Program-made: the position numbers and the translations under genes
Shown here: piece after piece, positions 9,221-25,919 of the stretch
How positions within the stretch are numbered: the stretch's first letter is position 1
Layout: each line of letters starts with the position of its first letter
The notes under the pieces: model-generated
Told to the model about the DNA's origin: nothing
The model's database searches: none
What the model saw: the letters and a program-made list of their open reading frames with translations, nothing else
NCBI GenBank assembly: GCA_025928335.1
Contig: JAICJQ010000028.1
Location: 1-33,884, forward strand
Direction of reading: 5' to 3'
DNA length: 33,884 nt
Source: Gemmatimonadaceae bacterium
GTDB taxonomy: Bacteria; Gemmatimonadota; Gemmatimonadetes; Gemmatimonadales; Gemmatimonadaceae

Positions 9221-9307
9221 GGGCGGGGATACCGAGAAGGGCGCAAATAACGAGAACCACGGGATGACGAGAACGACGGGATAACGAGTGGGGCGGAGAT
9301 AACGGAA
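9221..9307 (+). repeat. 18-bp degenerate repeat array, sense to the upstream gene
   Basis: Five tandem units of 17-18 bases begin 22 bases after the stop codon at 9199: 9221-9238, 9239-9256, 9257-9273, 9274-9290 and 9291-9307. The sense consensus is about GGCGGGGATAACGAGAA. The units vary mainly in the first few bases, while ATAACGAGAA is best kept. The same unit appears on the other strand at 9401-9541. The 342-base gap between the convergent genes (9200-9541) contains only these arrays and a terminator. Confidence 0.9.
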
Positions 9308-9327
9308 CGGCGCTGACCGCGGAAACC

Positions 9328-9370
9328 AACCGCGGCCAGGAGTTCAGCCCCTGCGCCGCGGTTGTTTTTT
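9328..9370 (+). terminator. Rho-independent terminator of the barrel-protein gene
   Basis: AACCGCGGC (9328-9336) pairs with GCCGCGGTT (9355-9363), a 9-bp perfect stem with an 18-base loop. It is followed by G and six T residues (9365-9370), the classic intrinsic terminator on the plus strand. It sits centrally between the two inverted repeat arrays. Confidence 0.9.
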
Positions 9371-9400
9371 CGTCGTCGCCGTAACGTCGCTACCGCTGTT

Positions 9401-9541
9401 CTCGTTATCCACGTCCTTCTCGTGATTTCCGCTTTTCTCGTCATCCCGTTGTTCTCGTTATCCCCGCCTTTCTCGTTAGCTCCGCACCTCTCGCAGTCGC
9501 GCCTTTCCCGTTATCTCCGCACCTCTCGCAGTCCCGCCTTC
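9401..9541 (-). repeat. 18-bp degenerate repeat array, sense to the gene ending at 9542
   Basis: About eight units of 17-18 bases fill the space up to the stop codon of the leftward lipoprotein gene. Read on that gene's strand, they follow GGCGGRGATAACGAGAA, for example TGCGGAGATAACGGGAAA and GGCGGGGATAACGAGAA. Some units carry ACTGCGAGAGG instead of ATAACGAGAA, so two unit types partly alternate. The array is inverted relative to 9221-9307, so a read-through transcript could fold the two into a long stem around the terminator. Confidence 0.9.
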
Positions 9542-10735
9542 CTATTGTTTTGCAAACACTACTTCTCCCGTCCTCCTCTTGTATTTCCCGGTCAGGACTC
9601 CGCCGTTCAAAACGCCGGTAAATACGTCCACCGTATCCCCCGCCAACTGATTCGCCAACATCGCGAACGACACACTGTTCCCGTTCATCCGCCCGATCAG
9701 CCCATCCGTGCGCGGGTTCGGCCCGACGCTCGTATACCTGCCGCTCAACGCCATCGTCGCTTCCGCCGCCCCGTTCGCCGGTGGTGATTCGACGTAGAGC
9801 GTAAGGTTCGAGATGAACGACGTCGCATCTCCCGTCGCCGACGTGACTCGATATCTCCCTTCGATCGGCTCCGTCTGATCCGCGACCACCGTCAGCGTTC
9901 CGCTGTTCAACGTCACCATCGACCCAAACATTCCGAGCGCGCCGTTCAGCCGGCTGATGATTCCGCTGCCGGTGAATGGATCGTTGTTCGTCCGGTAATA
10001 GTCGAAGAAGTTGCTGTCCACCGCCGCAATGAGAACGTCCTGTCGAAAGCCGGGGACGAAGACGCGTGGCAGATCCGACGCGAACAGATTGCGGAGGTCA
10101 CCGTTCATGCTAAAACGCAGACTGTCCGTGAACAGAAAGAACGGACCGAACGGACTCTCGATACGCAGCGCGTAGGCGCGTGCCGCGGCGGCGCGCTTCC
10201 ACTCGACGACGAGCGAATCGTGATCGCGGTTGAACGTCCGCGACAGCGCTCCCGTCGACGCGAATTCAGGGAAGGGAACGCGCGTGAACGCCGTCACCTG
10301 TTCACCCTGCTGGGTGACGATGTGGAGCTGGTATCGAGCGCCGCGATTGAGACCGCCGCGAAGCGCCACGCGATACACGCCCGCCCCAGTTCCATTCGTC
10401 GAAACCGAGAGGTCCTCCACCGCCGGCTGTACCACCCCGGCCGAGTCGATGATCTCGACGCGCGCGCCCGACACGGGAATGCCGCCATCGCTCACGATCG
10501 GATCGGCGGCATTGAACGCCGTGTCGTGGACCGGAATCGCGCCGGTCAGGGTGCGCTCCACCAGAATCACCTGCGTTGTCGCGTTTGCATTGAGCACGGC
10601 GTGTACCACGATGCTCGGCGTCGTCTTCGGCACCGTGATCGTTCCGAGCTCGCACGACGTCGATGCGATCACGCCGAGCGCGGCGAGCGCCGCGAGCACC
10701 GCGGCCCAGCCGCGCCTAAAACCGAATCGTGACAC
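9542..10735 (-). CDS. DUF4249-like lipoprotein, TonB-receptor partner
   Basis: The 397-residue exported protein has a cleavable N-terminus with a cysteine in ALGVIASTSCELG, suggesting a lipoprotein, then the block SIVVHAVLNANATTQVILVE typical of DUF4249-like proteins. These occur mainly in Bacteroidota and Gemmatimonadota next to TonB receptors. The mature part is beta-rich with an Ig-like N-terminal region (GARVEIIDSAGVV). The start is taken as GTG at 10735, which supplies the positive n-region VSRFGFRRGW and overlaps the end of the receptor gene by 20 bases. Translation is thus probably coupled to the receptor. The protein may be a surface substrate-capture partner; the substrate is unknown. 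Confidence 0.8.
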   Translation of the reverse strand: MSRFGFRRGWAAVLAALAALGVIASTSCELGTITVPKTTPSIVVHAVLNANATTQVILVERTLTGAIPVHDTAFNAADPIVSDGGIPVSGARVEIIDSAGVVQPAVEDLSVSTNGTGAGVYRVALRGGLNRGARYQLHIVTQQGEQVTAFTRVPFPEFASTGALSRTFNRDHDSLVVEWKRAAAARAYALRIESPFGPFFLFTDSLRFSMNGDLRNLFASDLPRVFVPGFRQDVLIAAVDSNFFDYYRTNNDPFTGSGIISRLNGALGMFGSMVTLNSGTLTVVADQTEPIEGRYRVTSATGDATSFISNLTLYVESPPANGAAEATMALSGRYTSVGPNPRTDGLIGRMNGNSVSFAMLANQLAGDTVDVFTGVLNGGVLTGKYKRRTGEVVFAKQ

Positions 10736-13091
10736 CGGCCGACGGGAGGAGGGGGAATTGAGAGATCGCCTCGCGCGTCGGCGGCGCCTTCTCATAGTTG
10801 AACACGTACAGGAAAACGTTCTTCGCGTCGTACGCGTTCACCACGCTGAGATACGGCGCGATCGTCGCCCCACGCACGTGATAGGTTCGCGACACATCGA
10901 GGTCGAGCCGCTGCGTCGTCGGGAGTCGCGCGGCATTCCGCGGCCCGCCGACGAACTCCGTCTGCGACGAGCCGCCGCGTGTGCCATATGCGTTCGTGCC
11001 GGGGTCGTACACGCGCCGCACGATCTCGCCGACGATGTCGGTGTACGGCGTCCCCGTCGCGTAGCCGAATCGTGCGCCGAACAGATAATTCTTCAGCCGC
11101 CACGTACCGACGATGTTGATATCGTGCCACCGGTCGTGGCCCGGGAAATACCGCAGCGTGTCCTGAATCCGCGCCGCCACCGCGTACGTGTACGACACCC
11201 ATCCGCTGAACCGGTGATTCGGCGTATCGAACTGTCGCAGCAGCACGTCCACGCCGTACGAGTTGCCCTGCACGGGAAAGAATTCGTCGCCGCGCATCCC
11301 CGGATCTTCCTGCGGGTTCGATTCGAGGAGCGTCCCGTATCGCTTGTAGAATCCCTCGACCCGCGCCAGCCTCGACGTTCCGAACCACCGTTCCATCCCG
11401 GCGATGTAGTGCCACGCGCTCGATACGGGGATCACCGAGTCGCTCGCCAGCCAAAAATCGAAAAGCCGAACCGGGATGTCTTCGCGCGCCAGTGAGTGGG
11501 TCCACTGCTCGAAGCGACCCACCGCTCCCGTCAGCGCGAAATTCGAATCGACGAAGAACTTCGCCGAGAGCCGCGGCGAAAGCGCCGCCCATGAACGCCC
11601 GCTCAGCGCGTCGCCGCGCAGCCCCGTTTCGATGAGCCACCGCGAATTCGGCCGCCAAAGGTCGTCGATGAACACCGAGCCGGCGACCGGCCGCTGACTC
11701 AGATCGTACAGCAGCGTTCCCGTCTGCGGCGAGTTCGCGAGGTACGAGATTCGGTACTGGCCCACCTCGTAGCCGTACGTCCGATCGTGCGCCGTCGTGT
11801 GGGTCGTCAGGCTCCCGCCGACTCGCGCATCCGTCACGACGTTGTTCAGCGTCAGCGCCCCACCGCCCAGATCGAGGCGCGTCGAGAAGTGCGATATCGA
11901 CGCCCGCTGCTCCACCGTGCCGCTGTTCCCGAACAAGAGCCGCGAGACTCCGGCGTTATTCGGCCGCGCATACGAGTGCGACAGCGTCGCGCCGCCTACC
12001 GTGTTCCCCCAGCCGAAGCTGAACGTCCCACCGCTTGGATTCGTCGACGTCGAGTCTCCGAAGCTCGCGATGTTCGCGTCGAGCGCGTCTCGTCCGTCGT
12101 ACAACGTGAACGAGAACTTCGTCGTCGGCGTGAACGCGTACGAGGCGTGCGCCTGCTCGTCGCGAAAGTGATAGGGCAATTCGTTCGTGCTGATCAGCTC
12201 AACGAATTTGTCGGCATACGTTCGCCGTCCGCCCACCGACCACGTCCCCTTTCCGCCCGCGAACGCACCGCCCAGTTGCAGCGTCGACGCCAGCACCGAC
12301 ACCTCTGCGGATCCATGCAATCCCGACCGTGCTTCCTCCGCTGAATTCACCTCGAGCACGCTCGACAACCGGCCGCCGTAGCGCGCCGGAAAACCGCCCG
12401 TCATCAGCGTGATGTCGCCCACCATCGGATCGATGAACGTGCTGAACAATCCGCCGAGGTGAAACGGATTGTAGATCGGATAGCCGTCCATCAAGATCAG
12501 ATTCTGATCCGCCTCGCCTCCGCGCACATTGAGCCCGGTCGAGAAATCGTTGCGCGCCTCGACGCCCGGCAGCAACTGCACCACGCGCATCACATCCGGT
12601 TCGCCGAACTTCGGTACGCCCTCAGCCGCGCGCGCCGTGATGCTCACCGTGCCGACATTCGGCTTCGACTCGAACAACTCGCGATCGAGTGGACGAGCCT
12701 CCGTGCGCATCGCGCCAAGCACCACAGCCGATTGCGCGAGCCGAATCTCGACCCGCGCCGTGTCGTTCGCGACGATCGTCACGCGCTGCTCCGTTGTCGC
12801 GTAGCCGAGGAGTCGCGCTTGAAGTACGACCCGCCCAGGGGCCAACCCATCAATCGCGAAGCGACCCAACGAATCCGCGATGACCCCACGCGTCGTCCCT
12901 GCGACGGAGACCGACGCCCCCGCACGCGTCTGCCCGGTGGCAGAGTCTACGACGCGGCCCGCCACCACGCCCGTCCGCCGAGACTCCTGCGCCTTCACGC
13001 TCGACGCCATCATCCACACCAACACGAGACATTGAACGCCCCGAGTCGCCCAATCGCCCGATCGCCCAATCGCACAATCGCCCGCTCTCAA
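10716..13091 (-). CDS. TonB-dependent outer-membrane receptor with N-terminal carboxypeptidase-regulatory-like domain
   Basis: The 791-residue protein would import a substrate across the outer membrane using TonB energy. After the signal region (VLVWMMASSVKAQ) comes a regulatory-like beta-sandwich (VAGRVVDSATGQTRAGASVSV to about residue 120). The plug follows, with VMRVVQLLPGVEARNDFSTG and LNVRGGEADQNLILMDGYPI. A 22-strand-type barrel ends in the expected aromatic residue, AGVTIRF. The assigned start is TTG at 13091, forming a TTGA overlap with the preceding stop; GTG codons further in (VLVWMM...) are alternatives. The N-terminal RAGDCAIGRSGDWATRG is encoded by an octamer repeat array, which makes the true start uncertain. 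It is the middle gene of a three-gene leftward operon. Confidence 0.93.
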   Translation of the reverse strand: MRAGDCAIGRSGDWATRGVQCLVLVWMMASSVKAQESRRTGVVAGRVVDSATGQTRAGASVSVAGTTRGVIADSLGRFAIDGLAPGRVVLQARLLGYATTEQRVTIVANDTARVEIRLAQSAVVLGAMRTEARPLDRELFESKPNVGTVSITARAAEGVPKFGEPDVMRVVQLLPGVEARNDFSTGLNVRGGEADQNLILMDGYPIYNPFHLGGLFSTFIDPMVGDITLMTGGFPARYGGRLSSVLEVNSAEEARSGLHGSAEVSVLASTLQLGGAFAGGKGTWSVGGRRTYADKFVELISTNELPYHFRDEQAHASYAFTPTTKFSFTLYDGRDALDANIASFGDSTSTNPSGGTFSFGWGNTVGGATLSHSYARPNNAGVSRLLFGNSGTVEQRASISHFSTRLDLGGGALTLNNVVTDARVGGSLTTHTTAHDRTYGYEVGQYRISYLANSPQTGTLLYDLSQRPVAGSVFIDDLWRPNSRWLIETGLRGDALSGRSWAALSPRLSAKFFVDSNFALTGAVGRFEQWTHSLAREDIPVRLFDFWLASDSVIPVSSAWHYIAGMERWFGTSRLARVEGFYKRYGTLLESNPQEDPGMRGDEFFPVQGNSYGVDVLLRQFDTPNHRFSGWVSYTYAVAARIQDTLRYFPGHDRWHDINIVGTWRLKNYLFGARFGYATGTPYTDIVGEIVRRVYDPGTNAYGTRGGSSQTEFVGGPRNAARLPTTQRLDLDVSRTYHVRGATIAPYLSVVNAYDAKNVFLYVFNYEKAPPTREAISQFPLLPSAGVTIRF
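13042..13081 (-). repeat. Octamer tandem repeat at the 5' end of the TonB receptor gene
   Basis: On the plus strand five 8-base units follow each other: CGAGTCGC, CCAATCGC, CCGATCGC, CCAATCGC, ACAATCGC. The first is a rotation of the GCCGAGTC octamer found in the genes at 23677 and 27272. Eight is not a multiple of three, so loss or gain of a unit would shift the frame between the TTG start and the signal peptide. Confidence 0.85.
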
Positions 13092-14857
13092 ACTTTATAT
13101 CGCTCCATAATCACCCGATGAATATCCCGCGCGTCCTCAATCCGTGCGCGGTTCAGCTCGAGTTCCGGGGGACCAATGAGGAAGGGGTACAGCTGGTTCC
13201 CGCCAGCCGCGCCGTGGGCGCCGATTTGGTCGTCGAACGACACGATCTCGTACCCGTCGTAAGCCCCGAAGATCGTCACGTCGCCCGTATTTGGCTGTGA
13301 GGCGAGATGCTCGATGGCGCGCGCGGTCAGATGCCCGGTGCCGTACGGCTCGAGGGGATTCTCCCCTTCGAGCACCTCCACCTCTCCGCCGGCGATGATG
13401 GCTCGTCCGCTCGTACTCTCCACGTGCACCGAAGGTCCATTCTTCGTCGCGAGCAGCCCGACGCCGGGATGCTGGAGCAGCTCGACATACAAGTTTGCGC
13501 GGCGCGCATCACGCATGATGTCGGTCAGCTCGAGGGGAAGGGGATCGTCGGCGAAATACAGCAGTGCGAGATCCGAGCTGTACGTGACCACAACGTCGTG
13601 GTCCGCTTCGATCCGGTATTTCTCGGGAAGGATCAGCTCACGAAGCCCGTACCTGCTCCGGATCCAGTCGCGAAAGCGCACCAGCGCCCGTCGCACCGTA
13701 CGCTGGTTCTCGGGCGTCACCTCGGCGACGGCGTTCACCACCTGCGCCGTGATGTCCGCGTACTCAGAGGTATCCGCGAAGCTGGCCCGCAGCCGGAGCG
13801 GCGTCTCGCCACGCAGCGCGGCGTCGCCCTCGAGGATTCGCTCGACCGTCTTGCCGAGTGTCTCCCCGAAGCGCACACGATAGCTCGACGACGGCGTCAT
13901 TCCGTGATCCGACAGAATCACGAGATCGTACTGCCGGCCGCCGACGTTCTCGATCATGCGACGGATTTCGCGAATCCGCGCGTCCGTGCGCCGCAGATCG
14001 CGCAGCGCCTGAAAGCTCGATGGACCGAAGTGATGCGCCAGCTCGTCGTACTGCATGAACGTGCTGTAGATGATCGGAACTCCCAGGTAGACGTCGAGTC
14101 CCATGGCCATCGTTTGCAGCTCGCGCACGACGACGTTGCTCAGCACGCGAATGAACGGGAACAGTCCTTCGCTGTGCGTCCGCTTGCGCATCAGCTCACC
14201 GACGCCTCGCTCGTATTCCTCGCGGAGCCACTCGAGCACCGCCTGGAGTCCCATCCGCGCCACGCGGATCGGATGGAGGAGGATGAGCATCGCCATCCGC
14301 CAGCCGCCGAGTCGCTGGAACGCGGACAACTTCTCGCGCGTCGCGACGGTGAACGCGACGGTCTGCGCGTCGCCGTCGAGCAGGTTGACATAGCTGGAGC
14401 CCCCCGCGAGCGCCCCGGGCGCGCCAATGCGGTCACGGATGTACTGCACGCCGGCCGGCGTGTTGCACGTGATGACGCGTCGCTCCGCTTTGTCATAGAA
14501 TCGAAAGGCGGGAATCGCCTCGTTCTCGCCGTAGAAGATCCCCGCCTGCGCGTACGGCGTCGCCGACGGCAGGCCGGTAAACCACCGCCGGAGGGTGTAA
14601 CCCTCCTCGCGCACCATGTGCTCGATCGTCGGGCAGTACCCGAGCTCGATGGCGCGTCGGAGCTCCGCGTAGGCGAGGGCGTCGATCTGGAGCATGATGA
14701 GCCCACGGCGGCCGTCGTCCGGTCGCCGCTCCCGGCGAAACACGCGATATTTGAGGGCGAAGTACCACTCCAAGAAGCGGTGGCCGCGAGAAGGCCGCCG
14801 CGGATCGCCAACAGCATCGCCTTGCCCCCCGCCGGAGACCGTCCTGGGTTCAGACAT
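13088..14857 (-). CDS. Alkaline phosphatase superfamily / type I phosphodiesterase-like protein
   Basis: The 589-residue protein belongs to the alkaline-phosphatase superfamily, close to nucleotide pyrophosphatase/phosphodiesterases. GLIMLQIDALAYAELRRAIE carries the first metal-binding Asp. CPTIEHM and WFTGLPSATPYAQAGIFYGE supply the region of the catalytic Thr/Ser, FMQYDELAHHFGPSS the second Asp/His pair, and ILSDHGMTPSSS the Asp-His pair. It lacks an obvious signal peptide; a hydrophobic LILLHPIRVARMGLQAVLEW segment lies mid-protein. The start ATG 14857 (MSEPRTVSGGGQG) is chosen. An ATG at 14923 would overlap the divergent ccdA gene by 80 bases, and an ATG at 14695 would remove a basic N-terminus. 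It heads the operon with the TonB receptor. The substrate, perhaps a phosphodiester or phospholipid head group, is unknown. Confidence 0.85.
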   Translation of the reverse strand: MSEPRTVSGGGQGDAVGDPRRPSRGHRFLEWYFALKYRVFRRERRPDDGRRGLIMLQIDALAYAELRRAIELGYCPTIEHMVREEGYTLRRWFTGLPSATPYAQAGIFYGENEAIPAFRFYDKAERRVITCNTPAGVQYIRDRIGAPGALAGGSSYVNLLDGDAQTVAFTVATREKLSAFQRLGGWRMAMLILLHPIRVARMGLQAVLEWLREEYERGVGELMRKRTHSEGLFPFIRVLSNVVVRELQTMAMGLDVYLGVPIIYSTFMQYDELAHHFGPSSFQALRDLRRTDARIREIRRMIENVGGRQYDLVILSDHGMTPSSSYRVRFGETLGKTVERILEGDAALRGETPLRLRASFADTSEYADITAQVVNAVAEVTPENQRTVRRALVRFRDWIRSRYGLRELILPEKYRIEADHDVVVTYSSDLALLYFADDPLPLELTDIMRDARRANLYVELLQHPGVGLLATKNGPSVHVESTSGRAIIAGGEVEVLEGENPLEPYGTGHLTARAIEHLASQPNTGDVTIFGAYDGYEIVSFDDQIGAHGAAGGNQLYPFLIGPPELELNRARIEDARDIHRVIMERYKV

Positions 14858-15566
14858 CGCGCTTCCAATCGCCTTCGGCGCCGGGCTGGCGAGTTTTCTC
14901 TCGCCCTGTGTGCTTCCGCTCATCCCGAGCTACATCACCTTCATCACGGGGATGTCGCTCGACGACGTAGCACGCGCGCGGCGGTTGGCGCTTATCCACG
15001 CACTCCTCTTCGTCGCCGGGTTCTCGCTCATCTTCCTCGCGCTCGGGGCGTCGGCGACCTTGCTCGGCCGCCTGCTGTTTACGTATCGGGCCTGGATCAG
15101 CCGGATCGGCGGCGTGCTGGTACTGGTCTTTGGTCTGTACCTACTCGGTGTCTTCAACCTACGCGCTTTCTCACAGGAACGCCGGATTCACATCACCGAC
15201 AAGCCATTGGGATACCTGGGGACGGTAGTCGTCGGCTTCGCGTTCGGGGCGGGTTGGACGCCCTGCATCGGCCCCATCCTCGGCGCCATTCTCACCTACG
15301 CCGCGACGCAGGCGCAGGTGTCGCGCGGCATCGTACTGCTCGGCGCCTACTCACTTGGCTTGGCGATTCCATTCGTTATCGCCGCGGTTGCCGTCGAGTG
15401 GTTCCTCAGCGCGTTCGGATCGATTCGGCGACACATGGTGTGGGTGACGCGAATCTCGGGGGCAGTATTGGTCGTCGTGGCGATCCTGATGATCGCTGAC
15501 TACATGCCGATCCTCACGGGGTTCCTCCAGCGACTAACGCCGGCGGCGCTGAAAAGTCGGTTGTGA
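14844..15566 (+). CDS. ccdA: CcdA-like thiol:disulfide transporter (cytochrome c biogenesis)
   Basis: CcdA moves reducing equivalents from cytoplasmic thioredoxin across the inner membrane for cytochrome c maturation and periplasmic disulfide reduction. The 240-residue protein has six predicted helices and the two redox cysteines in FLSPCVLPLIPSYI and GWTPCIGPILGAI, which are symmetric in the two halves. No ATG, GTG or TTG lies at the expected start. A CTG at 14844 gives the canonical N-terminus GSDIALPIAFGAGLASF and has a GGAG (14834-14837) six bases upstream, so CTG initiation is likely. The alternative, ATG 14694, would add 50 basic non-homologous residues. Its start overlaps the divergent phosphodiesterase start by 14 bases. 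No ResA or ResB partner is in the window. Confidence 0.88.
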   Translation: MGSDIALPIAFGAGLASFLSPCVLPLIPSYITFITGMSLDDVARARRLALIHALLFVAGFSLIFLALGASATLLGRLLFTYRAWISRIGGVLVLVFGLYLLGVFNLRAFSQERRIHITDKPLGYLGTVVVGFAFGAGWTPCIGPILGAILTYAATQAQVSRGIVLLGAYSLGLAIPFVIAAVAVEWFLSAFGSIRRHMVWVTRISGAVLVVVAILMIADYMPILTGFLQRLTPAALKSRL

Positions 15567-15589
15567 GGATGGGACATTTGCAGGCCGGG

Positions 15590-15862: not shown

Positions 15863-15933
15863 CAGCGCCGAAAAGCCGCCACCCGCCCCCACCCGGCTTT
15901 AGCCAACATCACCGTCCCCGACGTCGCATCCTC

Positions 15934-18975: not shown

Positions 18976-18981
18976 AGGAGG
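18976..18981 (+). promoter_or_regulatory. Shine-Dalgarno site of the glycine-zipper lipoprotein
   Basis: A perfect AGGAGG lies 7 bases upstream of the ATG at 18989 and decides that start. Only 28 bases separate this gene from the divergent ABC exporter start, so promoters must lie within coding sequence. Confidence 0.9.
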
Positions 18982-18988
18982 AATACGC

Positions 18989-19900
18989 ATGTTGAAATAT
19001 ACCCGTCGTTTGGGACCGTCCCTGCTCGTTGCGGCCGCGCTCCTCGGTGCTTGCAGCGCCGAGTCGAAGAAGGGGCCCGATAGCGTGGCGCTCGGTGCCG
19101 ACACGACGTTGAATCGTGACCTCGCCATGGCGAATCACGACTCCACCGCGCAGCCCCAGCTCAAGGACGTTCCAGCGTCCCCGCCGGCTGCAGCGCCGGA
19201 GAAGAGTGCGCCCGTACGGAGCACACCAAAGGCGACACCCAAGTCAACGCCAAAATCAGCACCCAAAGCGAGCTCGCCTCCGCCGCAGCCCGCGGCGACG
19301 ACTACACCAAGCGGTAACACCGTCACCACCAATCCGAACGCCGGCAAGAATAGCTCGGCCAGCGGCGGCGGAGCAGTCGGATCGATCCCGGCCGGCGCCA
19401 CGCTCACCGCGAGCTCGAGCGCGCGCGTCTGCACGAACACGAACAACGTCGGTGATCACGTGACCGCGACGATCGCCAACGCCGTCACCGGCTCCAACGG
19501 TGCGGCGATTCCCGCCGGCGCGACCCTCAACCTCACCGTGACTCGCCTCAAGCGCAGTGAGAACTCGAACGACCCCGTCGTGCTCGAGTTCGCGGTGAAC
19601 AGCGTCACCTTCGACGGCCACACCTACCCGATCGAAGGCTCGATCGAGTCGGCGAGCGTCGAGCGCGTCAAGGATCAGCCAGGCGACAAGACCGCCCAAA
19701 AAGTTGCCATCGGCGCCGTCGCCGGCGCCATCGCCGGCAAGATCCTCGGCAAGAGCACCAAGGGCGCAGTCATCGGCGGCGCCGCAGGAGCAGCCGCGGG
19801 TGCCGCAGCGGCATCGGCTACCGCGAACTATCAGGGGTGTGTGCCAGCCGGCGGACAAATAGTCGTGAAGCTCACTTCCCCGGCGACGGTAAGGGCGTAG
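18989..19900 (+). CDS. Lipoprotein with Pro/Lys-rich linker and glycine-zipper segment
   Basis: The 303-residue protein has a lipoprotein signal (VAAALLGACSAESKK, cysteine near residue 22). A low-complexity Ala/Pro/Lys/Ser linker (TPKATPKSTPKSAPKASSPP, about residues 75-95) follows, made of imperfect 12-15-base repeats in the DNA. The folded part (about 130-220) is beta-rich (IPAGATLTASSSARVCTNTN, then LEFAVNSVTFDGHTYPIEGS). A glycine zipper follows at about 240-275 (AIGAVAGAIAGKILGKSTKG, then AVIGGAAGAAAGAAAA), as in proteins that insert into or span the envelope. It ends with a beta strand, GGQIVVKLTSPATVRA. The linker could cross the peptidoglycan. No precise family or function is recognised. 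Confidence 0.85.
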   Translation: MLKYTRRLGPSLLVAAALLGACSAESKKGPDSVALGADTTLNRDLAMANHDSTAQPQLKDVPASPPAAAPEKSAPVRSTPKATPKSTPKSAPKASSPPPQPAATTTPSGNTVTTNPNAGKNSSASGGGAVGSIPAGATLTASSSARVCTNTNNVGDHVTATIANAVTGSNGAAIPAGATLNLTVTRLKRSENSNDPVVLEFAVNSVTFDGHTYPIEGSIESASVERVKDQPGDKTAQKVAIGAVAGAIAGKILGKSTKGAVIGGAAGAAAGAAAASATANYQGCVPAGGQIVVKLTSPATVRA

Positions 19901-19970
19901 GACTGCGCAACTGCGGGAACTGCGGAGATAACGTGAACCGCGGAACTAACGTCACCGCGTGAAACAGCGA
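19901..19970 (+). repeat. 18-bp repeat array following the lipoprotein gene
   Basis: Starting directly after the stop codon there are about four sense-oriented units. The clearest are CTGCGGAGATAACGTGAA and CCGCGGAACTAACGTCA; the first and last units are more degenerate. They belong to the same family as 9221-9307 and lead straight into the terminator at 19979. Confidence 0.8.
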
Positions 19971-19978
19971 AGACACAG

Positions 19979-20013
19979 AACGGCGGCGAGGACTAGTCCT
20001 CGCCGCCGTTTTT
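19979..20013 (+). terminator. Perfect-palindrome intrinsic terminator
   Basis: Positions 19979-20010 form a perfect 32-base palindrome, AACGGCGGCGAGGA/CTAG/TCCTCGCCGCCGTT, that runs into five T residues (20009-20013). It terminates the lipoprotein gene on the plus strand. Only two A residues precede it, so minus-strand termination is weaker, though the hairpin is symmetric. Confidence 0.92.
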
Positions 20014-20035
20014 GCCACCGTTCACTCCGTCCGCC

Positions 20036-20166
20036 ACTCGCGCAGTTTCACGCCCTTCCGTTATTCCCGTTGTTCGCGTTATCCCGCCCTTCCGTTATCT
20101 CCGCAGTTCCCGGTATCCCCGCCGTTCACGGTATCCCCGCACTTCGCACTTCGCAGTTCAGCGGCT
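20036..20166 (-). repeat. 18-bp repeat array following the ggt gene
   Basis: About seven units run up to the ggt stop at 20167. Read on that gene's strand they include GTGCGGGGATACCGTGAA, CGGCGGGGATACCGGGAA, CTGCGGAGATAACGGAA and GGGCGGGATAACGCGAA. The array is inverted relative to 19901-19970, with the palindrome terminator in between. The layout repeats the one at 9200-9541. Confidence 0.9.
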
Positions 20167-21951
20167 TCAGTATCCCACCGCCTTCCCACTCGACCGTGGA
20201 TCCGGCATCCCGAAGTACCCTCCCCGAACTTTCATCACCGCGTTGATCAGTCCGACCCCGCCGATCGGCGAAACGCCGTAGCCCATTCCACGAAGCGAAT
20301 CCACCACCGCCGGAAACAAACCATTCCGCTCGTACTGCAGCGTATCCGGCAACGCTTGATGGTGGATCCTGGGCGCACTCACCGCGTCCGACAAAATCAT
20401 GTGATGATCGAGCACGTTGAGAATCACCTGCGACGTGCTCGTGATGATTCTCGGTCCTCCACGCGAGCCGACAACGAGCAGTAACGATCTGTCTCGATCG
20501 AGCACGATCGTCGGCGACATCGCGCTCAGCATTCGCTTGCCCGGCTGAATCGCGTTCGCTTCGCCTTGCACGAGCCCGAACATATTCGGCTTCCCCGGCG
20601 CCGCGGCGAAGTCGTCCATCTCGTCGTTCATGAAGAACCCCGCGCCACGCACGTAGACCCCCGAGCCGTACAACGCGTTCAACGTCGTCGTCGTCGCCAC
20701 CGCGTTGCCCCGCGCGTCGGCCACCGAGTAGTGCGTCGTCTCGTTTCCCTCGCGCATCGTCCGCGACACCGACGGCGTCGGCGTTACACGGTCGCGGCCG
20801 ATCGTCGCTCGCAGCTTGCTCGCGTACGCCTTGTCGGTGAGCTCCTTCATCGGCACGGGAACGAACGCGGGATCGGCGAGCTTCTCGTTTCGATCGATGA
20901 ACGCGCGCTGATAGGCCGAGCCCAGAATGTGTTCGTATTCCGCGCTGCCGAACGGCGGGAGGGTGGGGAACCCCTCGAGGATGTTGAGCGTCTCCGTCAC
21001 CGTAACACCGCCCGACGACGACGGCGGCATCGTGTACAGCGTGTAGCCGCGATAGGTCGAGACGACCGGCTCACGCCACACCGGCTGATACTTCGCCAAA
21101 TCTTCTTTCGTGATGATCCCACCGTCCTTCCGCATCTCTTCGGCGATCGCGTCGGCCGTCGGCCCCGCGTAGAATCCCGCCGCGCCCTGTTCGGCGATCC
21201 GGCGCAGCGTCGCCGCGAGCTCCGGTCGTCGCAGCGTCTTGCCGACAGCGTCGGCCCCACGATACGGCCCGAATGGCTCGGCGCCCGCGAACTGCGAGAT
21301 CAACCGCCAGTTCGACTGAAAGGAGCCCGCAAGCGCCGCGTCCACGATGAACCCTCGCTCAGCGTAGCGAATCGCCGGCGCCATCACGTCGGCGAGCTTC
21401 ATGGTTCCGTATTTCGCGAGCGCCGCCGTCAAACCCGCGACGGCACCCGGCACTCCGCTCGCCAACGGTCCCACGATGCTTTTGTCCGTGAGATTCCCTT
21501 CGGCGTCGAGATACATGTTCCGCGTCGCCGCCAGCGGCGCGACCTCTCGATAGTCGAGCGCCGCGGATCGTCCGTCGGCCATGTGGATCACCATGTACCC
21601 GCCGCCGCCGATGTTGCCGGCCTCCGGATACACCACGGCGAGCGCGAATCCAACCGCCACCGCCGCGTCCACCGCGTTCCCACCCTGTTTCAAAATCTCA
21701 ACGCCAGCCTCACTCGCCAACGGCGCGTCGCTCGAGATCATCGCATGCGGGGCGAACGTCGCCGCTTTCCCCGCCTTGTAGGGCCACGCCGCCGGAAAGA
21801 CCGCCGGCTTCGTCCCGGGCGGATAGCCGGCAACACCCGTCATCACCCTCGGCTGCCCGCCAACGTCCGTCGCCCCCGACGGCGGCCCAGCTTGCCGGTG
21901 ACATGCAGTAAGAAGAAGAATGCCCAGACCGAATGAGACTTTTCTCATCAT
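20167..21951 (-). CDS. ggt: Gamma-glutamyltransferase (glutathione hydrolase) lipoprotein precursor
   Basis: This enzyme cleaves gamma-glutamyl bonds of glutathione and related peptides in the periplasm or at the cell surface. The precursor self-cleaves into two subunits. The 594-residue protein starts with a lipoprotein-type signal (MMRKVSFGLGILLLTAC). Family blocks are HAMISSDAPLASEAGVEILK, GGNAVDAAVAVGFAL, GNIGGGGYMVIHM, PPSSSGGVTV, the autoprocessing site NETTHYSVADARGNAVATTT (nucleophile is the first Thr of TTHYSV), FFMNDEMDDF, MLSAMSPTIV and GSRGGPRIITS. Length and all key motifs are normal. A lipobox cysteine is less usual than a simple signal peptide. The start is ATG 21951 or 21948. 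It is preceded by a short repeat region and is convergent with the glycine-zipper lipoprotein. Confidence 0.96.
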   Translation of the reverse strand: MMRKVSFGLGILLLTACHRQAGPPSGATDVGGQPRVMTGVAGYPPGTKPAVFPAAWPYKAGKAATFAPHAMISSDAPLASEAGVEILKQGGNAVDAAVAVGFALAVVYPEAGNIGGGGYMVIHMADGRSAALDYREVAPLAATRNMYLDAEGNLTDKSIVGPLASGVPGAVAGLTAALAKYGTMKLADVMAPAIRYAERGFIVDAALAGSFQSNWRLISQFAGAEPFGPYRGADAVGKTLRRPELAATLRRIAEQGAAGFYAGPTADAIAEEMRKDGGIITKEDLAKYQPVWREPVVSTYRGYTLYTMPPSSSGGVTVTETLNILEGFPTLPPFGSAEYEHILGSAYQRAFIDRNEKLADPAFVPVPMKELTDKAYASKLRATIGRDRVTPTPSVSRTMREGNETTHYSVADARGNAVATTTTLNALYGSGVYVRGAGFFMNDEMDDFAAAPGKPNMFGLVQGEANAIQPGKRMLSAMSPTIVLDRDRSLLLVVGSRGGPRIITSTSQVILNVLDHHMILSDAVSAPRIHHQALPDTLQYERNGLFPAVVDSLRGMGYGVSPIGGVGLINAVMKVRGGYFGMPDPRSSGKAVGY

Positions 21952-21959
21952 GACAAGAC

Positions 21960-22018
21960 CCCAACGATTCCCGCGTTAGCCCGCGCCTGTCCGCGTTAGC
22001 CCGCGGCAGTTCCAATCC
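21960..22018 (-). repeat. Two GC-rich repeat units after the barrel-protein gene
   Basis: Read on the minus strand, two units share GCGCGGGCTAACGCGG with slight differences (CCGCGGGCTAACGCGGA and GGCGCGGGCTAACGCGGGAA). They lie between the stop of the barrel gene (22061) and the start of ggt (21951). The GGCTAACG core resembles the GGATAACG core of the 18-bp arrays, and the orientation relative to the upstream gene is the same. I treat it as a divergent member of that family. Confidence 0.55.
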
Positions 22019-22060
22019 CGACGAATCGTCCCGTCAAGGAAGTCCGACGTCGGCGAAGGG

Positions 22061-22690
22061 CTAAAAGCCAATGCGAGCCCCAATCCGAAACGTCAACTGC
22101 CTCGGCGCCTCGGCGTTCGTCGCATTCCCCTGCGAATGCAGAATGATGTCCCACTGCTCGCCGACGTACATGTCCATGTTCGGCGCAAACCCGTAGCCGA
22201 GTCCACCGCCGAACCCGAAGGTAAAGTCGTTGCTCGAGCCGGAGGCCAGATCAGTCCCCGTCGTCTTGTCCCGGAAGTGGCTGAACTGGGTGATTCCGCC
22301 CTCGAGATTGTACATCCCGTGGAATCCAAGCCCGCTCCCCGCGTGCACGAACGCCAACCACTGCGTGATGTCACCCGTGGCCGAGCACCCACCCAGACAG
22401 TTGGTCGTAAATCCCTGATACGTCATCGGCGCCGTCGCGAAACCGGCACTGATTCCGGCCGACACGCCCCGCTGGATCGTCTTCTCGAACGTCGCTCGGA
22501 TCTGCGACGAGTAGCCGAACGCCCAGTGGCTGTTCGTGGCGCCGTCGCTCATCGATGTCCCGTCGAGGTAGCCGTACGACAAACCGACCCAATACCCCGG
22601 CTCCCCGATCCCGCCGCGCGGAATTCGCGGACCCTGCGCGACGGCGGTCGCGGCGGCGACCATCAGCATCACAATACCGCGTCGAAGCAT
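22061..22690 (-). CDS. Outer-membrane beta-barrel protein
   Basis: The 209-residue protein has a signal peptide (MLRRGIVMLMVAAATAVAQ). The mature protein is rich in Gly and aromatic residues in alternating strands (YWVGLSYGYLDGTSM, GVSAGISAGFATAPMTYQGF, FTFGFGGGLGYGFAPNMDMY) and ends in the barrel-assembly signature TFRIGARIGF with a terminal Phe. It has two cysteines in TNCLGGCS, perhaps a surface loop disulfide. It is likely an 8- to 10-stranded barrel of unknown ligand. The start ATG 22690 has GAGGG five bases upstream. It is divergent from murQ, with 54 bases between the starts. Confidence 0.82.
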   Translation of the reverse strand: MLRRGIVMLMVAAATAVAQGPRIPRGGIGEPGYWVGLSYGYLDGTSMSDGATNSHWAFGYSSQIRATFEKTIQRGVSAGISAGFATAPMTYQGFTTNCLGGCSATGDITQWLAFVHAGSGLGFHGMYNLEGGITQFSHFRDKTTGTDLASGSSNDFTFGFGGGLGYGFAPNMDMYVGEQWDIILHSQGNATNAEAPRQLTFRIGARIGF

Positions 22691-22704
22691 TTAACCCTCA
22701 TCTG

Positions 22705-22734
22705 TTGCGGGTCGCGCGCGACGCCGCGTAAGTT
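22705..22734 (+). promoter_or_regulatory. Candidate murQ promoter
   Basis: TTGCGG (22705-22710) and TAAGTT (22729-22734) are spaced 18 bases, a weak sigma-70 match. The expected start of transcription is only a few bases before the murQ ATG (22745), so the message would be nearly leaderless. The call rests on this pattern only. Confidence 0.25.
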
Positions 22735-22744
22735 AGCTGGCGAC

Positions 22745-23680
22745 ATGACGTTCATCGACCCCCGGCTGACCGAGCGCCGCAACCCCCGCAGCGCCGAGAT
22801 CGATCTCGCGTCGCCGCTCGAGATCGTCGATTTAATAAACACCGAAGACCGCACCATCCCCCACGTCGTGGCCACCCAGCGCGAGGCGATCGCTCGCGCC
22901 ATCGACAAGGCCGAGGCAACCTTCCGGAGCGGCGGCCGCCTCTTCTACGTCGGCGCGGGAACGTCCGGCAGGCTCGGCGTGCTCGATGCCTCCGAATGCA
23001 CCCCCACCTTTGGTGTTGACCCTGAGATGGTCCAGGGCGTCATCGCCGGCGGGTTCAAAGCGCTCACACGTTCGCAGGAAGGCGCCGAGGATCGCATCGA
23101 GAGCGCCGTCGAAGATCTCACCGAGCGCGGCGTGCGCGCCGGTGACTTCGTCATCGGCATCGCCGCATCCGGCACCACGCCCTATGTCCGACGCGCCCTC
23201 GAATACGCTCGCGGCATCGGCGCCGCGACGGGTCTCGTCGCCTGCTCGCCGCCCCCCGACGACACACTCGCCGCCGTCGACATTCTCATTCTGCCCATCA
23301 CCGGCCCCGAAGTCGTCACCGGTTCGACGCGCATGAAAGCCGGCACCGCCACCAAGATGGTGCTCAACATGATCACCACGGGCGCGATGATCCGGCTCGG
23401 CAAGACCTACGGCAACCTCATGGTCGACCTGCGCGCATCGAACAACAAGCTCAGGGACCGCAGTGAGAGAATTCTCATGGAGGTTTGCGAGGTCGATCGC
23501 GCCAAGGCGCGCGAGTTGCTCGACGCCGCCGGCGGCATAGTGAAGACCGCGATCGTGATGTACTTCCTCCACGAATCGCGCGAAGAGGCAGAACGCGCGC
23601 TCGACAATGGCAACGGCGTGATCCGTCGCATCGTCCACCGCCCGCCGCCTCCGGTCAGTCCCTCTTCCTCCGCGCCGTGA
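22745..23680 (+). CDS. murQ: N-acetylmuramic acid 6-phosphate etherase
   Basis: MurQ splits MurNAc-6-phosphate into GlcNAc-6-phosphate and D-lactate in the cytoplasm during peptidoglycan recycling. The 311-residue SIS-fold protein shows the family start LTERRNPRSAEIDLASPLEI, the sugar-phosphate site YVGAGTSGRLGVLDASEC with catalytic Glu84, GAED with Glu115, AASGTTPYVRRAL, and GSTRMKAGTATKMVLNMIT. Length and catalytic residues agree with known MurQ. A short Pro/Ser tail (PPPPVSPSSSAP) is added at the C-terminus. The ATG at 22745 gives the conventional start. The stop overlaps the anmK start by 4 bases (GTGA), so this is a two-gene operon for anhydro-MurNAc use. Confidence 0.97.
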   Translation: MTFIDPRLTERRNPRSAEIDLASPLEIVDLINTEDRTIPHVVATQREAIARAIDKAEATFRSGGRLFYVGAGTSGRLGVLDASECTPTFGVDPEMVQGVIAGGFKALTRSQEGAEDRIESAVEDLTERGVRAGDFVIGIAASGTTPYVRRALEYARGIGAATGLVACSPPPDDTLAAVDILILPITGPEVVTGSTRMKAGTATKMVLNMITTGAMIRLGKTYGNLMVDLRASNNKLRDRSERILMEVCEVDRAKARELLDAAGGIVKTAIVMYFLHESREEAERALDNGNGVIRRIVHRPPPPVSPSSSAP

Positions 23681-24819
23681 GCGTCTACGTCGGATTGATG
23701 TCCGGCACATCGCTCGATGGGATTTCGGCGGCTGTCGTCCGCTTCACGCCGGTCGATCCGGCAACCGCCGGGTCGCCGAGCCGCCGAGTCGCCGAGCTCC
23801 TCGCATTCGTCTCCACCGAGTACACACCGCAGCAGCGCGACCGCCTTCAGGCCGCGCTCACCGAAGGCACGGCGCGCGACTACTGTCGGCTCGGCTTCGA
23901 CCTCGGCTCATGGCTCGCTGACGCGACGGTTGCCGTGCTCGCGGAAGCCGGCGTCCCGAGATCCACGGTCCGAGCTATTGGATCACACGGCCAAACGATC
24001 TGGCACGAAGCGCCGCATTCCACCTGGCAGCTCGGCGAAGCCGCGGTGATCGCCGAGCGCGTCGGGATCGACGTCGTGAGCGATTTCCGCGTGCGCGACG
24101 TCGCCGCGGGCGGGCAGGGCGCTCCCCTCGTCCCGATCGCCGACGCCCTCCTCTTCGCCGGCGACGACTGGCGCGCGCTTCAGAACATCGGCGGCATCGG
24201 TAACGTCACTGTCGTCCCGCCGAACGGGAAGCTCGACGGCGTCCGGGCGTTCGACACGGGACCCGGCGTTTCCGTGATCGACGCTGTTACGAGAACTCTC
24301 ATCGCCGGCGCGACCTACGATGTCGACGGCAAACATGCCGCCGCCGGCACGTCGATCGACTCGGTCGTCGACCACTTGCTCGCCCACCCGTACTTCGCCG
24401 CCGAGCCACCCAAGTCGACGGGACGCGAATTGTTCGATCGGGCGTACGTTCAGTCCCTGATCGAGCGATGCAGAGAAAAGAGACCCTCCGCCACCCCCGC
24501 CGACATCATCGCCACCGCCACCAGCCTCACCGCCCGCTCGATCGCCGATTCATACCGTCGATTTCTTCCCGAGCCCGTCACTGAAGTTCTGGTCTCAGGT
24601 GGCGGCGCAAAAAATCCGACATTGCTGTCGATGATCCGACAGGCGATCGCGCCGATGGAAGTACTTCCATTCGCCGACCGATTCTTCGATGGCGAGGCGA
24701 AGGAGGCCGTGGCGTTTGCGTTGCTCGCGTGGCTGTTCGTCGAAGGCCGACCAGGGAACGTACCGCGAGCGACCGGCGCCAAAGGGCCTCGAGTGCTCGG
24801 GAAGTTGAGTCCCGCGTAA
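23677..24819 (+). CDS. anmK: Anhydro-N-acetylmuramic acid kinase
   Basis: AnmK hydrolyses the 1,6-anhydro ring of anhydro-MurNAc and phosphorylates it with ATP, making the MurQ substrate MurNAc-6-phosphate. The 380-residue protein has the starting motif YVGLMSGTSLDGISAAVV, GSHGQTIWHE, LQNIGGIGNVTVV, the catalytic Asp in AFDTGPGVSVID, and VSGGGAKNPTL near the C-terminus. The GTG at 23677 forms a GTGA overlap with the murQ stop. An extra segment near residues 30-45 (AGSPSRRVAELL) is encoded by octamer repeats and probably lies in a surface loop. The operon order is murQ-anmK. The murein amidase gene at 27272 may supply upstream cell-wall turnover products, but no transporter (AmpG) is seen here. 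Confidence 0.96.
   Translation: MSVYVGLMSGTSLDGISAAVVRFTPVDPATAGSPSRRVAELLAFVSTEYTPQQRDRLQAALTEGTARDYCRLGFDLGSWLADATVAVLAEAGVPRSTVRAIGSHGQTIWHEAPHSTWQLGEAAVIAERVGIDVVSDFRVRDVAAGGQGAPLVPIADALLFAGDDWRALQNIGGIGNVTVVPPNGKLDGVRAFDTGPGVSVIDAVTRTLIAGATYDVDGKHAAAGTSIDSVVDHLLAHPYFAAEPPKSTGRELFDRAYVQSLIERCREKRPSATPADIIATATSLTARSIADSYRRFLPEPVTEVLVSGGGAKNPTLLSMIRQAIAPMEVLPFADRFFDGEAKEAVAFALLAWLFVEGRPGNVPRATGAKGPRVLGKLSPA
23767..23798 (+). repeat. In-frame octamer repeat within anmK
   Basis: Four adjacent 8-base units: GCCGGGTC, GCCGAGCC, GCCGAGTC, GCCGAGCT. Three units equal 24 bases, hence the 8-residue peptide period SPSRRVAE. They share the octamer with the array at 27917-27956. Confidence 0.8.
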
Positions 24820-24833
24820 AGGGCCACTCCACC

Positions 24834-24911
24834 GGGATGCTCGTTGAACTACTAAACCCAGAGGCCGCTCCTCCGCGTCCTCTGCGTTGAGTAGTTCCGT
24901 CAGAGCATCCC
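24834..24911. repeat. Long multi-segment hairpin between convergent genes
   Basis: Three nested pairs make one long imperfect stem: GGGATGCTC (24834-24842) with GAGCATCCC (24903-24911), GAACTACT (24846-24853) with AGTAGTTC (24890-24897), and CAGAGG (24859-24864) with CCTCTG (24879-24884). It separates anmK (ends 24819) from the leftward gene ending at 24932. There is no T-run. It may be a bidirectional transcription barrier or a dispersed palindromic element; the CTCCGCG...CTCTGCG text resembles a widespread intergenic repeat type. Confidence 0.85.
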
Positions 24912-24931
24912 GACAGAGAACTCCCCCAAGA

Positions 24932-25678
24932 TCACTGACCCGCCACGACCTCGTACCGGAATCGCGTCCCACTCGCCCGCTGCCTCGTCTCCTGCGCCAA
25001 CACTTTCCGCGTCTCTGAATCCACCAGATACTCGGTCACCACGACAGCATCCGCGAACCGAACCCGCCACGCCGCGCGTCCCCGAGCATCCTCTCGCGCC
25101 ACGACCGACAATGTGTCGTATTCGAGCTTGAGGTCCTGCTCCGAGAAGAGCGGCACGACCAGCGACAACCCCGGCTTGTAGTCGAGCGATCGCACCAGCG
25201 ACTCGAGCTGGTTGAACGCGAAGATGTCATGGCTGAAATTCCGCTCGACTTGCTGCGTCGAGTCGCCGCGCTGCACAGTCCCCAGCACACGATTCCCCTC
25301 GAAACGCAGCGTCACTTGCGACGCGCCGAGGTCGAGCCATTCGAATACTGGCGCCAGCCGGTCTCGTTGCACGACCAGCGAATCCCGCACCGCGCGCGGC
25401 GGTGCATACGCGAACGTGTGGGCGATCTGTCCCGCGGGCGCGTCGATCATCCGATCGCTCCGTGTCATGACCGACCACTCCCGTTCCGTGGTGTCGCCAG
25501 TGCCCGGTCGCACCATCACGCGCATGCTCTGCGTCTGCGCCGTGAGATGCTTGGCATCGAGCGACCGGCTCCCCGGCAAGAGCATCACGGGCGAAGCCGC
25601 GCCGGACTGGGATTGAGCCACAGCGGCTTGCGCGACAAAGCAGAGCGCAGCCGCACTACAAGGAAATGAGAACTTCAT
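24932..25678 (-). CDS. Exported protein of unknown function
   Basis: The 248-residue protein has a clear signal peptide (MKFSFPCSAAALCFVAQAAVAQ). The mature part appears wholly beta-rich, with stretches such as AKHLTAQTQSMRVMVRPGTG, DTTEREWSVMTRSDRM, VTLRFEGNRVLGTVQRGDST and VTEYLVDSETRKVLAQETRQ. That pattern recalls periplasmic DUF3108- or LolA-like half-barrels, which bind lipids, but I see no diagnostic motif. GAGGA lies 5 bases before the ATG at 25678. The gene is convergent with anmK and lies downstream of the PP2C gene across a 241-base gap that holds an 18-bp repeat array. It probably has its own promoter. Confidence 0.75.
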   Translation of the reverse strand: MKFSFPCSAAALCFVAQAAVAQSQSGAASPVMLLPGSRSLDAKHLTAQTQSMRVMVRPGTGDTTEREWSVMTRSDRMIDAPAGQIAHTFAYAPPRAVRDSLVVQRDRLAPVFEWLDLGASQVTLRFEGNRVLGTVQRGDSTQQVERNFSHDIFAFNQLESLVRSLDYKPGLSLVVPLFSEQDLKLEYDTLSVVAREDARGRAAWRVRFADAVVVTEYLVDSETRKVLAQETRQRASGTRFRYEVVAGQ

Positions 25679-25809
25679 GATGTCCTCGCCGATTCGACTC
25701 GACGAGACACTTAACGAGCGCCCCACGCTCCCGCTACAACTTTGGCGCGAAGGGTATCCGGCTGGGGATGACCGGGCGACTCCCTGCCGCAGCGAGAATC
25801 AGCTGCTTT

Positions 25810-25919
25810 GTTCTCGCCCTTTCCACGCTGTTCTCGCCATCCCCGCTTTTTTCGTTATCCCGCAGTTCCCGTTACCGCGTCGTTCTCGTCATCTCCGCGC
25901 CCCTCGCACTTTCCCCGCC
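25810..25919 (-). repeat. 18-bp repeat array following the PP2C gene
   Basis: About six units extend from the PP2C stop (25920). On the gene's strand they read, for example, GGCGCGGAGATGACGAGAA, CTGCGGGATAACGAAAAA and AGCGGGGATGGCGAGAA. The array lies on the 3' side of the PP2C gene with the orientation seen in the other arrays. No terminator hairpin was found next to it, and here there is no convergent partner. The rest of the gap (25679-25809) shows nothing further. Confidence 0.85.

What the first reader, a model, noticed from the sequence alone, without database searches (positions are those of the whole stretch)
9221..25919. Degenerate 18-bp repeat that follows stop codons with fixed orientation to the gene
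Five arrays (9221-9307, 9401-9541, 19901-19970, 20036-20166, 25810-25919) share a 17-18-base unit, gene-sense consensus about GGCGGRGATAACGAGAA. Each begins within 0-25 bases of a stop codon, and each reads in the same sense as the gene it follows, on whichever strand that gene lies. Weaker units at 21960-22018, 33521-33545 and 66-83 obey the same rule. Chance orientation would be mixed. This suggests a function in the 3' untranslated region (message stability, termination, RNA-binding protein sites) or a mechanism that seeds repeats behind genes. All five clear arrays follow genes for exported or membrane proteins, though such genes dominate the window. I know of no described family with these properties.
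Basis: partly seen in the sequence, partly recalled or inferred. Interest (0 to 1): 0.8.

Follow-up and report, generated by a model that had tools for sequence, protein, structure and literature searches.

The report
Inverted repeat arrays of S23-type elements

Summary
Genome-wide the rule fails: 10 of 13 arms at 7 loci obey it, and 3 lie upstream of a start codon. Every pair of arms seen faces inward: 6 of 6 here, 7 of 7 in each of two congeners with a related unit. Paired arms fold into long stems, often with a terminator-like hairpin at the tip. One locus with the window's unit (contig C197) holds an S23/IVP gene (PF05635) between its arms. Among 31 S23 loci (Gemmatimonadota, cyanobacteria, Azospirillum), 27 have an inverted repeat across the gene that beats all 200 shuffles; 21 score 39 or more, against 2 of 293 control genes. 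Arms are mostly short tandem units. Two plasmids of one Nostoc strain give reciprocal empty sites at stop-start junctions. Best reading: the window arrays are S23-less copies of S23-type tandem-armed elements that sit in gene junctions, usually from the stop codon on, and are tolerated there as terminator-like hairpins. How they move is not shown. Ten searches of an open-access library found no description of such elements outside 23S rRNA.

The parts
9222..9310 (+). Locus A, left arm: tandem 17-18 bp units (GGCGGGGATAACGAGAA type), behind the stop of the OMP_b-brl gene (stop at 9199)
   Evidence: gene by Pfam
9311..9395 (.). Locus A, core: stem-loop followed by TTTTTT (T run seen by eye); A and the C178 element align over 242 bp at 78%, core included
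   Evidence: fold (z -4.3); the strict terminator scan found none
9396..9541 (-). Locus A, right arm: inverted tandem units, abutting the stop of the DUF4249 gene (9542)
   Evidence: 77 of 89 left-arm bases pair with it in the MFE fold
19901..19970 (+). Locus B, left arm: 2-3 degenerate units behind the stop of a Gly-zipper lipoprotein-like gene
   Evidence: Pfam (both Gly-zipper matches below their curated cut-offs)
19979..20013 (.). Locus B, core stem-loop AACGGCGGCGAGGACTAGTCCTCGCCGCCGTTTTT
   Evidence: fold (z -4.8); one terminator-like site, called on the minus strand
20036..20166 (-). Locus B, right arm: inverted tandem units next to the gamma-glutamyltranspeptidase stop (20167)
   Evidence: Pfam
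25810..25919 (-). Locus C: single arm behind the stop of a PP2C phosphatase gene (25920); no partner arm detected
   Evidence: fold of the neighbouring 73 nt is not unusual (z -1.2)

Best explanation
The arrays are the mirrored arms of a dispersed element family. Shown: pairs consist of tandem 16-18 bp units in inverted, inward-facing orientation; the arms are complementary and are predicted to fold into one long stem; the same 18-bp arms bracket an S23/IVP (four-helix-bundle) gene at contig C197; and S23 genes in three phyla are mostly bracketed by inverted tandem arms of many different units. Shown at one pair of plasmids: an S23 element is present at one stop-start junction and absent from the same junction of a near-identical operon, and vice versa. 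Inferred: window loci A, B and C are S23-less (non-autonomous or decayed) copies of such elements; they are retained in gene junctions, mostly with a stop codon on at least one side, because insertion there is harmless and a long hairpin can serve as, or extend, a bidirectional terminator; arm units expand by slippage and recombination. How copies move (S23 acting on the hairpin DNA or RNA, or host enzymes acting on it) is not known.
For: Inward pairing: own genome 6 of 6 pairs; G005 7 of 7 and G004 7 of 7 with unit model R2, no outward pair (hand clustering of the list). Complementarity: arm-arm duplex energies -74 to -198 kcal/mol against means of -41 to -74 with shuffled right arms; only 9 of 720 permutations of right arms (the true one included) do as well. 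Dispersal: own elements A and G share 242 bp at 78%, core included; six G005 copies align along their length. S23 link: C197 carries PF05635 (E 1e-12) between arms with the window's unit; a G004 element with a G005-type unit also carries PF05635 (E 2e-8). Census of 31 S23 loci: 27 beat all 200 Markov shuffles; 21 score >=39 against 2 of 293 control genes, the better of which is a GxxExxY gene; at the laxer score of 29 it is 28 of 31 against 33 of 293. Reciprocal empty sites in Nostoc sp. ATCC 53789. Placement: 22 co-directional, 2 convergent and 1 divergent spacer in the annotated census. Tandem arrays of any unit: 25 of 81 convergent, 58 of 424 co-directional, 24 of 183 divergent spacers in sampled genomes.
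Against: None of the three window loci holds an S23 gene, only 1 of 7 own loci does, and none of the six aligned G005 copies does (HMM search). Within-locus arm matching is no better than swapped matching in G005 (616 of 720 permutations as good or better), and without C197 it is weak in the own genome (9 of 120). Locus C has one arm only, and 12 of 19 places in G004 show one orientation only. At locus E the MFE fold pairs only 35 of 111 left-arm bases with the right arm. Mirrored arrays in random spacers are not significantly commoner in convergent than in divergent ones (6 of 81, 7 of 183, p 0.23; co-directional 9 of 424), and tandem arrays are as frequent in co-directional as in divergent spacers (p 0.90). 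In the census start-facing arms are nearly as close to the gene (median 13 bp) as stop-facing ones (median 8). 2 of 25 annotated census loci show no arms (L323, L336). Two of the four S23 loci inside the fetched genomes were found through their arrays. No transposition was observed. Strict terminator scans found no site at A and a weak one at B.
Confidence: 0.72

Rival explanations
1. Host-evolved extended terminators: the arrays are long bidirectional terminator or 3'-stabilising stems whose arms grow and stay complementary by replication slippage and template switching, with no mobile element behind them.
For: Terminator-like stem-loops at the centre of A, B, E and G. At locus B two congeners have different hairpins at the same junction (by eye). 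Tandem arrays are commonest in convergent spacers. The outer three units of the two C197 arms are identical in mirrored order.
Against: Copies at unlinked loci share units and core, which independent local growth does not predict. S23 genes lie between the arms, and reciprocal empty sites exist. Elements also occur in divergent spacers. Within-locus co-evolution is absent in G005.
Confidence: 0.15
2. REP/REPIN-type elements moved by a RAYT transposase.
For: Inverted doublets forming hairpins, dispersed and intergenic, and sometimes close to stop codons, as described for REPs (passages of PMC3116915 and PMC12306157).
Against: The units are stacked head-to-tail within each arm, are not palindromic, and occur at few loci. 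None of 29 proteins examined (28 beside or near the elements, 1 between the arms) matched a transposase in Pfam at E<=0.001. A genome-wide RAYT search was not done.
Confidence: 0.06
3. One reading: a 3'-UTR signal read in gene sense.
For: All 5 window arrays obey it.
Against: 3 of 13 own arms lie upstream of starts, reading backwards; divergent placements in relatives.
Confidence: 0.04
4. Antisense Rho barrier: the C-rich complement of each arm acts as a Rho-utilisation site that stops read-through from entering the neighbouring gene in antisense.
For: Arm strands are mostly purine-rich inward, so read-through RNA is C/T-rich: of 28 S23 loci with score >=29, 25 have >50% purine and 27 have G>C.
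Against: Unit sequence varies freely, the G005-type unit is not purine-rich (L259), and Rho dependence is untested.
Confidence: 0.03

Closest known systems
S23/IVP-encoding intervening sequences (IVS) of 23S rRNA genes
   Same: S23p ORF between inverted repeats that form a stable stem; called a selfish genetic element; the Coxiella IVS has tandem heptamers upstream of the ORF (PMC4990558, passages and abstract lines only)
   Different: Here the elements lie between protein genes, both arms are tandem arrays of differing 7-18 bp units, and arm-only copies exist
REPINs (REP doublets forming hairpins)
   Same: Dispersed inverted doublets in intergenic DNA, predicted hairpins, proposed as non-autonomous mobile DNA (PMC3116915, passages)
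   Different: Arms are multi-unit tandem arrays of non-palindromic units; the partner gene seen is S23, not a RAYT; few copies
BIMEs
   Same: Intergenic, often behind genes (recalled)
   Different: BIMEs alternate REP orientation (abstract of PMC2817692 in listings); here orientation is constant within an arm and flips once at the centre
Cyanobacterial short tandemly repeated repetitive (STRR) heptamers
   Same: 7-bp tandem units in Nostoc and relatives resemble the arms at S23 loci here (recalled; the name was seen only as a term count in a search listing)
   Different: STRRs are not described, to my knowledge, as inverted arms of S23 elements
Avd, accessory protein of diversity-generating retroelements
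   Same: 3 of 5 S23 proteins given to NCBIfam match the Avd model weakly (E 5e-8 to 7e-5)
   Different: Far below the Avd cut-off (23-33 against 80 bits); no reverse transcriptase was looked for

Membership tests
S23/IVP elements (IVS-like) | S23/IVP ORF (PF05635) between inverted repeats | tested here: met
   Met at C197 with the window's unit and in most of the 31 census loci. Not met at window loci A-C, which are arm-only
S23/IVP elements (IVS-like) | Insertion inside a 23S rRNA gene | tested here: not met
   Own loci lie between protein genes, one with a tRNA gene inside; no Rfam match in the window; so not called an rRNA IVS
S23/IVP elements (IVS-like) | Excision of the stem from RNA by RNase III | not testable with these tools
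   Needs RNA experiments
REPIN | Short palindromic REP unit in inverted doublets | tested here: not met
   Units are non-palindromic tandem 16-18-mers
REPIN | Cognate RAYT/Y1 transposase | tested here: inconclusive
   None among the 29 proteins examined; no genome-wide search
BIME | Alternating orientation of units | tested here: not met
   Constant orientation within each arm
Intrinsic terminator | GC-rich hairpin followed by a T run | tested here: inconclusive
   Central stretches of A, B, E, F and G fold better than all 200 shuffles; strict scan none at A, one weak at B; other loci not scanned
MITE-like transposable element | Terminal inverted repeats with target-site duplication | tested here: inconclusive
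   Inverted arms met; a possible 5-bp duplication at one of two Nostoc insertions, none evident at the other

The most novel reading that the evidence does not exclude
S23/four-helix-bundle proteins, long described without a known function, are the hallmark gene of a bacteria-wide class of small mobile or selfish hairpin elements whose ends are inverted tandem arrays of fast-changing short units. They insert at stop-start junctions; arm-only derivatives spread as intergenic satellites such as the arrays in this window; and 23S rRNA intervening sequences are one specialised case of the class.
Probability: 0.5. Interest if true: 0.88.

Novelty: new variant of a known kind. Interest (0 to 1): 0.74.

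Why it matters
S23/IVP proteins have solved relatives (2gsc, 2rld) and are described as having no known function (passage of PMC4990558). A recurrent anatomy, tandem inverted arms around the gene at gene junctions, turns that into a testable question: does S23 act on the arms? It would also link 23S intervening sequences, intergenic short tandem repeats and tandem-armed hairpins behind genes into one framework. It warns that orientation 'rules' relative to genes can arise from mirrored elements, and that draft assemblies may break at such arrays.

Tried and rejected
Gene-sense 3'-UTR rule: rejected after reading four other own-genome loci. Contamination by a foreign contig: synteny with congeners and no clear separation in composition argue against it. 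Own unit elsewhere: of 58 relatives searched with R1, 15 gave one or two weak matches (E 4e-7 to 0.009), none a cluster; only the best (G035) was read and is a coding repeat. Of 394 other phylum genomes, 9 have one or two single-unit matches, not read further as arrays. Both searches score a capped number of candidates or a sample. A 17-specified-base pattern in genome contigs gave 16 single matches in unrelated organisms, taken as chance and not read. Synteny breaks at arrays: 3 of 5 against 7 of 25 other junctions in G003 (hand count), too few to claim. Rfam: no match in the window. S23 in phages: no match. Literature: ten searches. Nothing on tandem-armed S23 elements outside 23S rRNA was in the listings seen; most subscription papers are not in that library. 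The first R2 alignment used wrong coordinates for one locus (A2) and was replaced (A3). The first S23 placement at L330 was wrong (scored 20) and was corrected from the annotation (scored 59); the counts are left as they came out.
Full report
What is in the window. The five arrays exist at the stated coordinates. The unit is a degenerate 17-18-mer, about GGCGGGGATAACGAGAA, made of two related half-units. A three-unit profile (R1, built from 26 segments of these and four other own loci) finds 25 matches at E<=0.01 in the 4.52 Mb, 281-contig assembly (150 of 1825 candidates scored), all at seven loci on five contigs: three in the window (A at 9.2-9.5 kb, B at 19.9-20.2 kb, C at 25.8-25.9 kb) and one each on C197 (D), C155 (E), C176 (F) and C178 (G). 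All seven had contributed segments to R1, so the profile added no new locus.

The orientation rule. Inside the window all five arrays read in the sense of the gene they follow. Each of loci D to G is a pair of arms, + then -, facing inward. D lies between convergent genes, so both arms obey. E, F and G lie in co-directional spacers, and there the second arm is upstream of a start and reads backwards. In total 10 of 13 arms obey the gene rule, but 6 of 6 pairs face inward. The gene rule therefore follows from the pair layout plus the choice of spacer. Stop-facing arms begin about 0-35 bp from the stop, by how the first degenerate unit is called (about 92 bp at G); the three start-facing arms leave roughly 35-130 bp, depending on the start codon called.

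The arms fold on each other. Duplex energies of left and right arm are -74 to -198 kcal/mol, against means of -41 to -74 for shuffled right arms. In minimum-energy folds 77 of 89 (A), 51 of 70 (B), 105 of 113 (D), 35 of 111 (E), 92 of 114 (F) and 58 of 103 (G) left-arm bases pair with the right arm. Central stretches of A, B, E, F and G fold better than all 200 shuffles; the stretch beside C does not. Only 9 of 720 permutations of right arms do as well as the true pairing (12 of 720 by alignment score), but without D this is 9 of 120, and in congener G005 there is no such effect (616 of 720 as good or better). So complementarity is a family property more than a locus-by-locus one.

A dispersed element family. 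Own loci A and G share 242 bp at 78%, including core sequence outside the units. Congener G005 has its own unit (AACGGCGCTGACTTCC type). All 30 matches of its profile R2 fall in seven places, each an inward pair; the six copies I read align along their length with a conserved core and lie in 2 convergent, 3 co-directional and 1 divergent spacer. Congener G004 has 44 R2 matches in 19 places: seven inward pairs, no outward pair, and 12 places with one orientation only (hand count). In a search of 395 phylum genomes with few candidates scored per genome, R2 matched at E<=1e-6 only in three genomes of this genus and two of one other genus of the family; two of the five loci from that other genus that I read are mirrored (L300, L303), three show one arm (L301, L305, L306). 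Short stretches of the G005 unit occur inside own elements (AACGGCGCTGACC in A and G, AACGGCGCAAACA in D; by eye), which suggests one diverged family; BLAST between the two sets gave no match at E<=1e-3. The own unit is not at the congener sites examined: these have a short spacer, a plain hairpin, or another repeat, and at the C197 and B orthologues G005 has its own inward pair. At locus E a tRNA-Arg gene between the arms is opposite to the upstream gene, whereas in 5 of 5 congeners it has the same strand, as expected if the segment between the arms was inverted. In sampled spacers of four genomes, excluding 12 stretches chosen for or containing known arrays, tandem arrays of any unit occur in 25 of 81 convergent, 58 of 424 co-directional and 24 of 183 divergent spacers, and mirrored ones in 6, 9 and 7; the convergent-divergent difference is significant for the first (p 0.001) but not for the second (p 0.23).

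The link to S23. The small ORF between the arms of D is a 23S_rRNA_IVP / four-helix-bundle protein (PF05635, E 1e-12; TIGR02436). A search of the DNA then held (1.99 Mb of stretches plus 184 small loci) found four distinct S23 loci: D, a G004 element, an own locus on C62 with an apparently frameshifted S23, and one in G035. After fetching the G035 flanks, all four have inverted arms with repeated units; two of the four had been found through their arrays. To widen this I took a plasmid search with the G035 S23 protein (31 records matched) and fetched the best place of 27 of them; H26, H29, H30 and H31 were not fetched. One is Gemmatirosa kalamazoonensis, one Azospirillum, 25 are cyanobacteria. 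With the four loci above this makes 31. In 27 of 31 the best inverted repeat across the gene beats all 200 Markov shuffles, and in 21 of 31 it scores 39 or more, against 2 of 293 genes of 250-600 nt in the sampled Gemmatimonadota stretches; at 29 or more it is 28 of 31 against 33 of 293. The better of the two high control hits is a GxxExxY gene; of three GxxExxY loci seen, two have inverted flanks. Some of the 31 are near-duplicates (L312/L321, L327/L328). With annotated gene bounds 23 of 25 annotated census loci reach 29; L323 and L336 do not. Units are mostly 7-8 bp in the plasmids and up to 18 bp here; the inward strand has more than half purines in 25 of the 28 loci scored.

Insertion at stop-start junctions. 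In Nostoc sp. ATCC 53789 two plasmids carry the same three-gene operon (143/146, 89/95 and 198/200 identical residues, the last over the first 200). One has an S23 element between genes 1 and 2, the other a different S23 element (48 of 121 aligned residues identical) between genes 2 and 3, so each is the empty site of the other. Both begin at or directly behind the stop codon. Over the annotated census, stop-facing arms have a median gap of 8 bp (15 of 23 within 23 bp) and start-facing arms 13 bp, so the arms fill the junction; spacers are 22 co-directional, 2 convergent and 1 divergent. I did not measure how often divergent spacers occur in those plasmids.

Interpretation. Shown: inward tandem arms, predicted fold, shared units between arm-only loci and an S23-bearing locus, and the S23-arm association in three phyla. 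Inferred: the window arrays are S23-less copies; junction placement reflects tolerance or preference; the hairpin may terminate or protect transcripts. Unknown: how copies move, and what S23 does. Three of five S23 proteins match the Avd model weakly. The known 23S IVS of Coxiella, described as selfish, has an S23p ORF within a stem and tandem heptamers upstream of it (PMC4990558, passages), which fits. I file the window arrays as a variant of S23-type elements, not as rRNA IVS, REPINs or BIMEs, because defining features of those were tested and not met.

Limits. The genome is a 79%-complete draft. Tandem arrays lie within 150 bp of 10 of 59 contig ends (two of the 59 were chosen for this, and some of the ten are weak), against 35 of 700 internal segments, so copies are probably under-counted. 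The gene caller is my own script. The plasmid census is dominated by cyanobacteria, while the control genes are Gemmatimonadota; the shuffles are the composition-matched control.

Noticed in passing
window 1-66: The contig begins with 5.1 perfect copies of a 13-bp tandem unit (CTGCTTACAGGCG), as if the assembly broke inside an array.
   Followed up: partly
L257 (G000:C153 end), L260 (G000:C65 end), L038 (G000:C220 start): A second own-genome unit, AACGGCGCGGCTGCCG type (16 bp), occurs as tandem arrays at contig ends, so the draft genome probably hides more elements.
   Followed up: partly
L021:2938-3013: tRNA-Arg(ccg) between the arms is inverted relative to the upstream gene; in five of five congeners it is on the same strand as that gene.
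   Followed up: yes
L202:13375-13800 and L206 near 3108-3494: GxxExxY genes (TIGR04256 for L202; L206 by tblastn only) flanked by long inverted repeats (scores 67 and 41), while a third at L238 is not; possibly a second gene type in similar elements.
   Followed up: partly
L176 and L123:19020-19437: Congener G001 carries tandem and inverted copies of a TGTCATCCTGAG.. repeat in several spacers, another mirrored repeat family.
   Followed up: no
L311, L314, L319: Cyanobacterial plasmid S23 genes lie inside CRISPR operons (between cas6 and cas4 in two, between cas10/cmr2 and a cmr3 family gene in one).
   Followed up: no
L020:11050-12153: The C-terminus of the luciferase-like gene runs into the array; the closest orthologues align only to about residue 347-356 of 367, so the array supplies the last residues and the stop codon.
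   Followed up: partly
L243:5188-5754: Own-genome S23 gene, apparently frameshifted, between inverted arms with 7-bp tandem units (one mismatch in 28 bases).
   Followed up: partly
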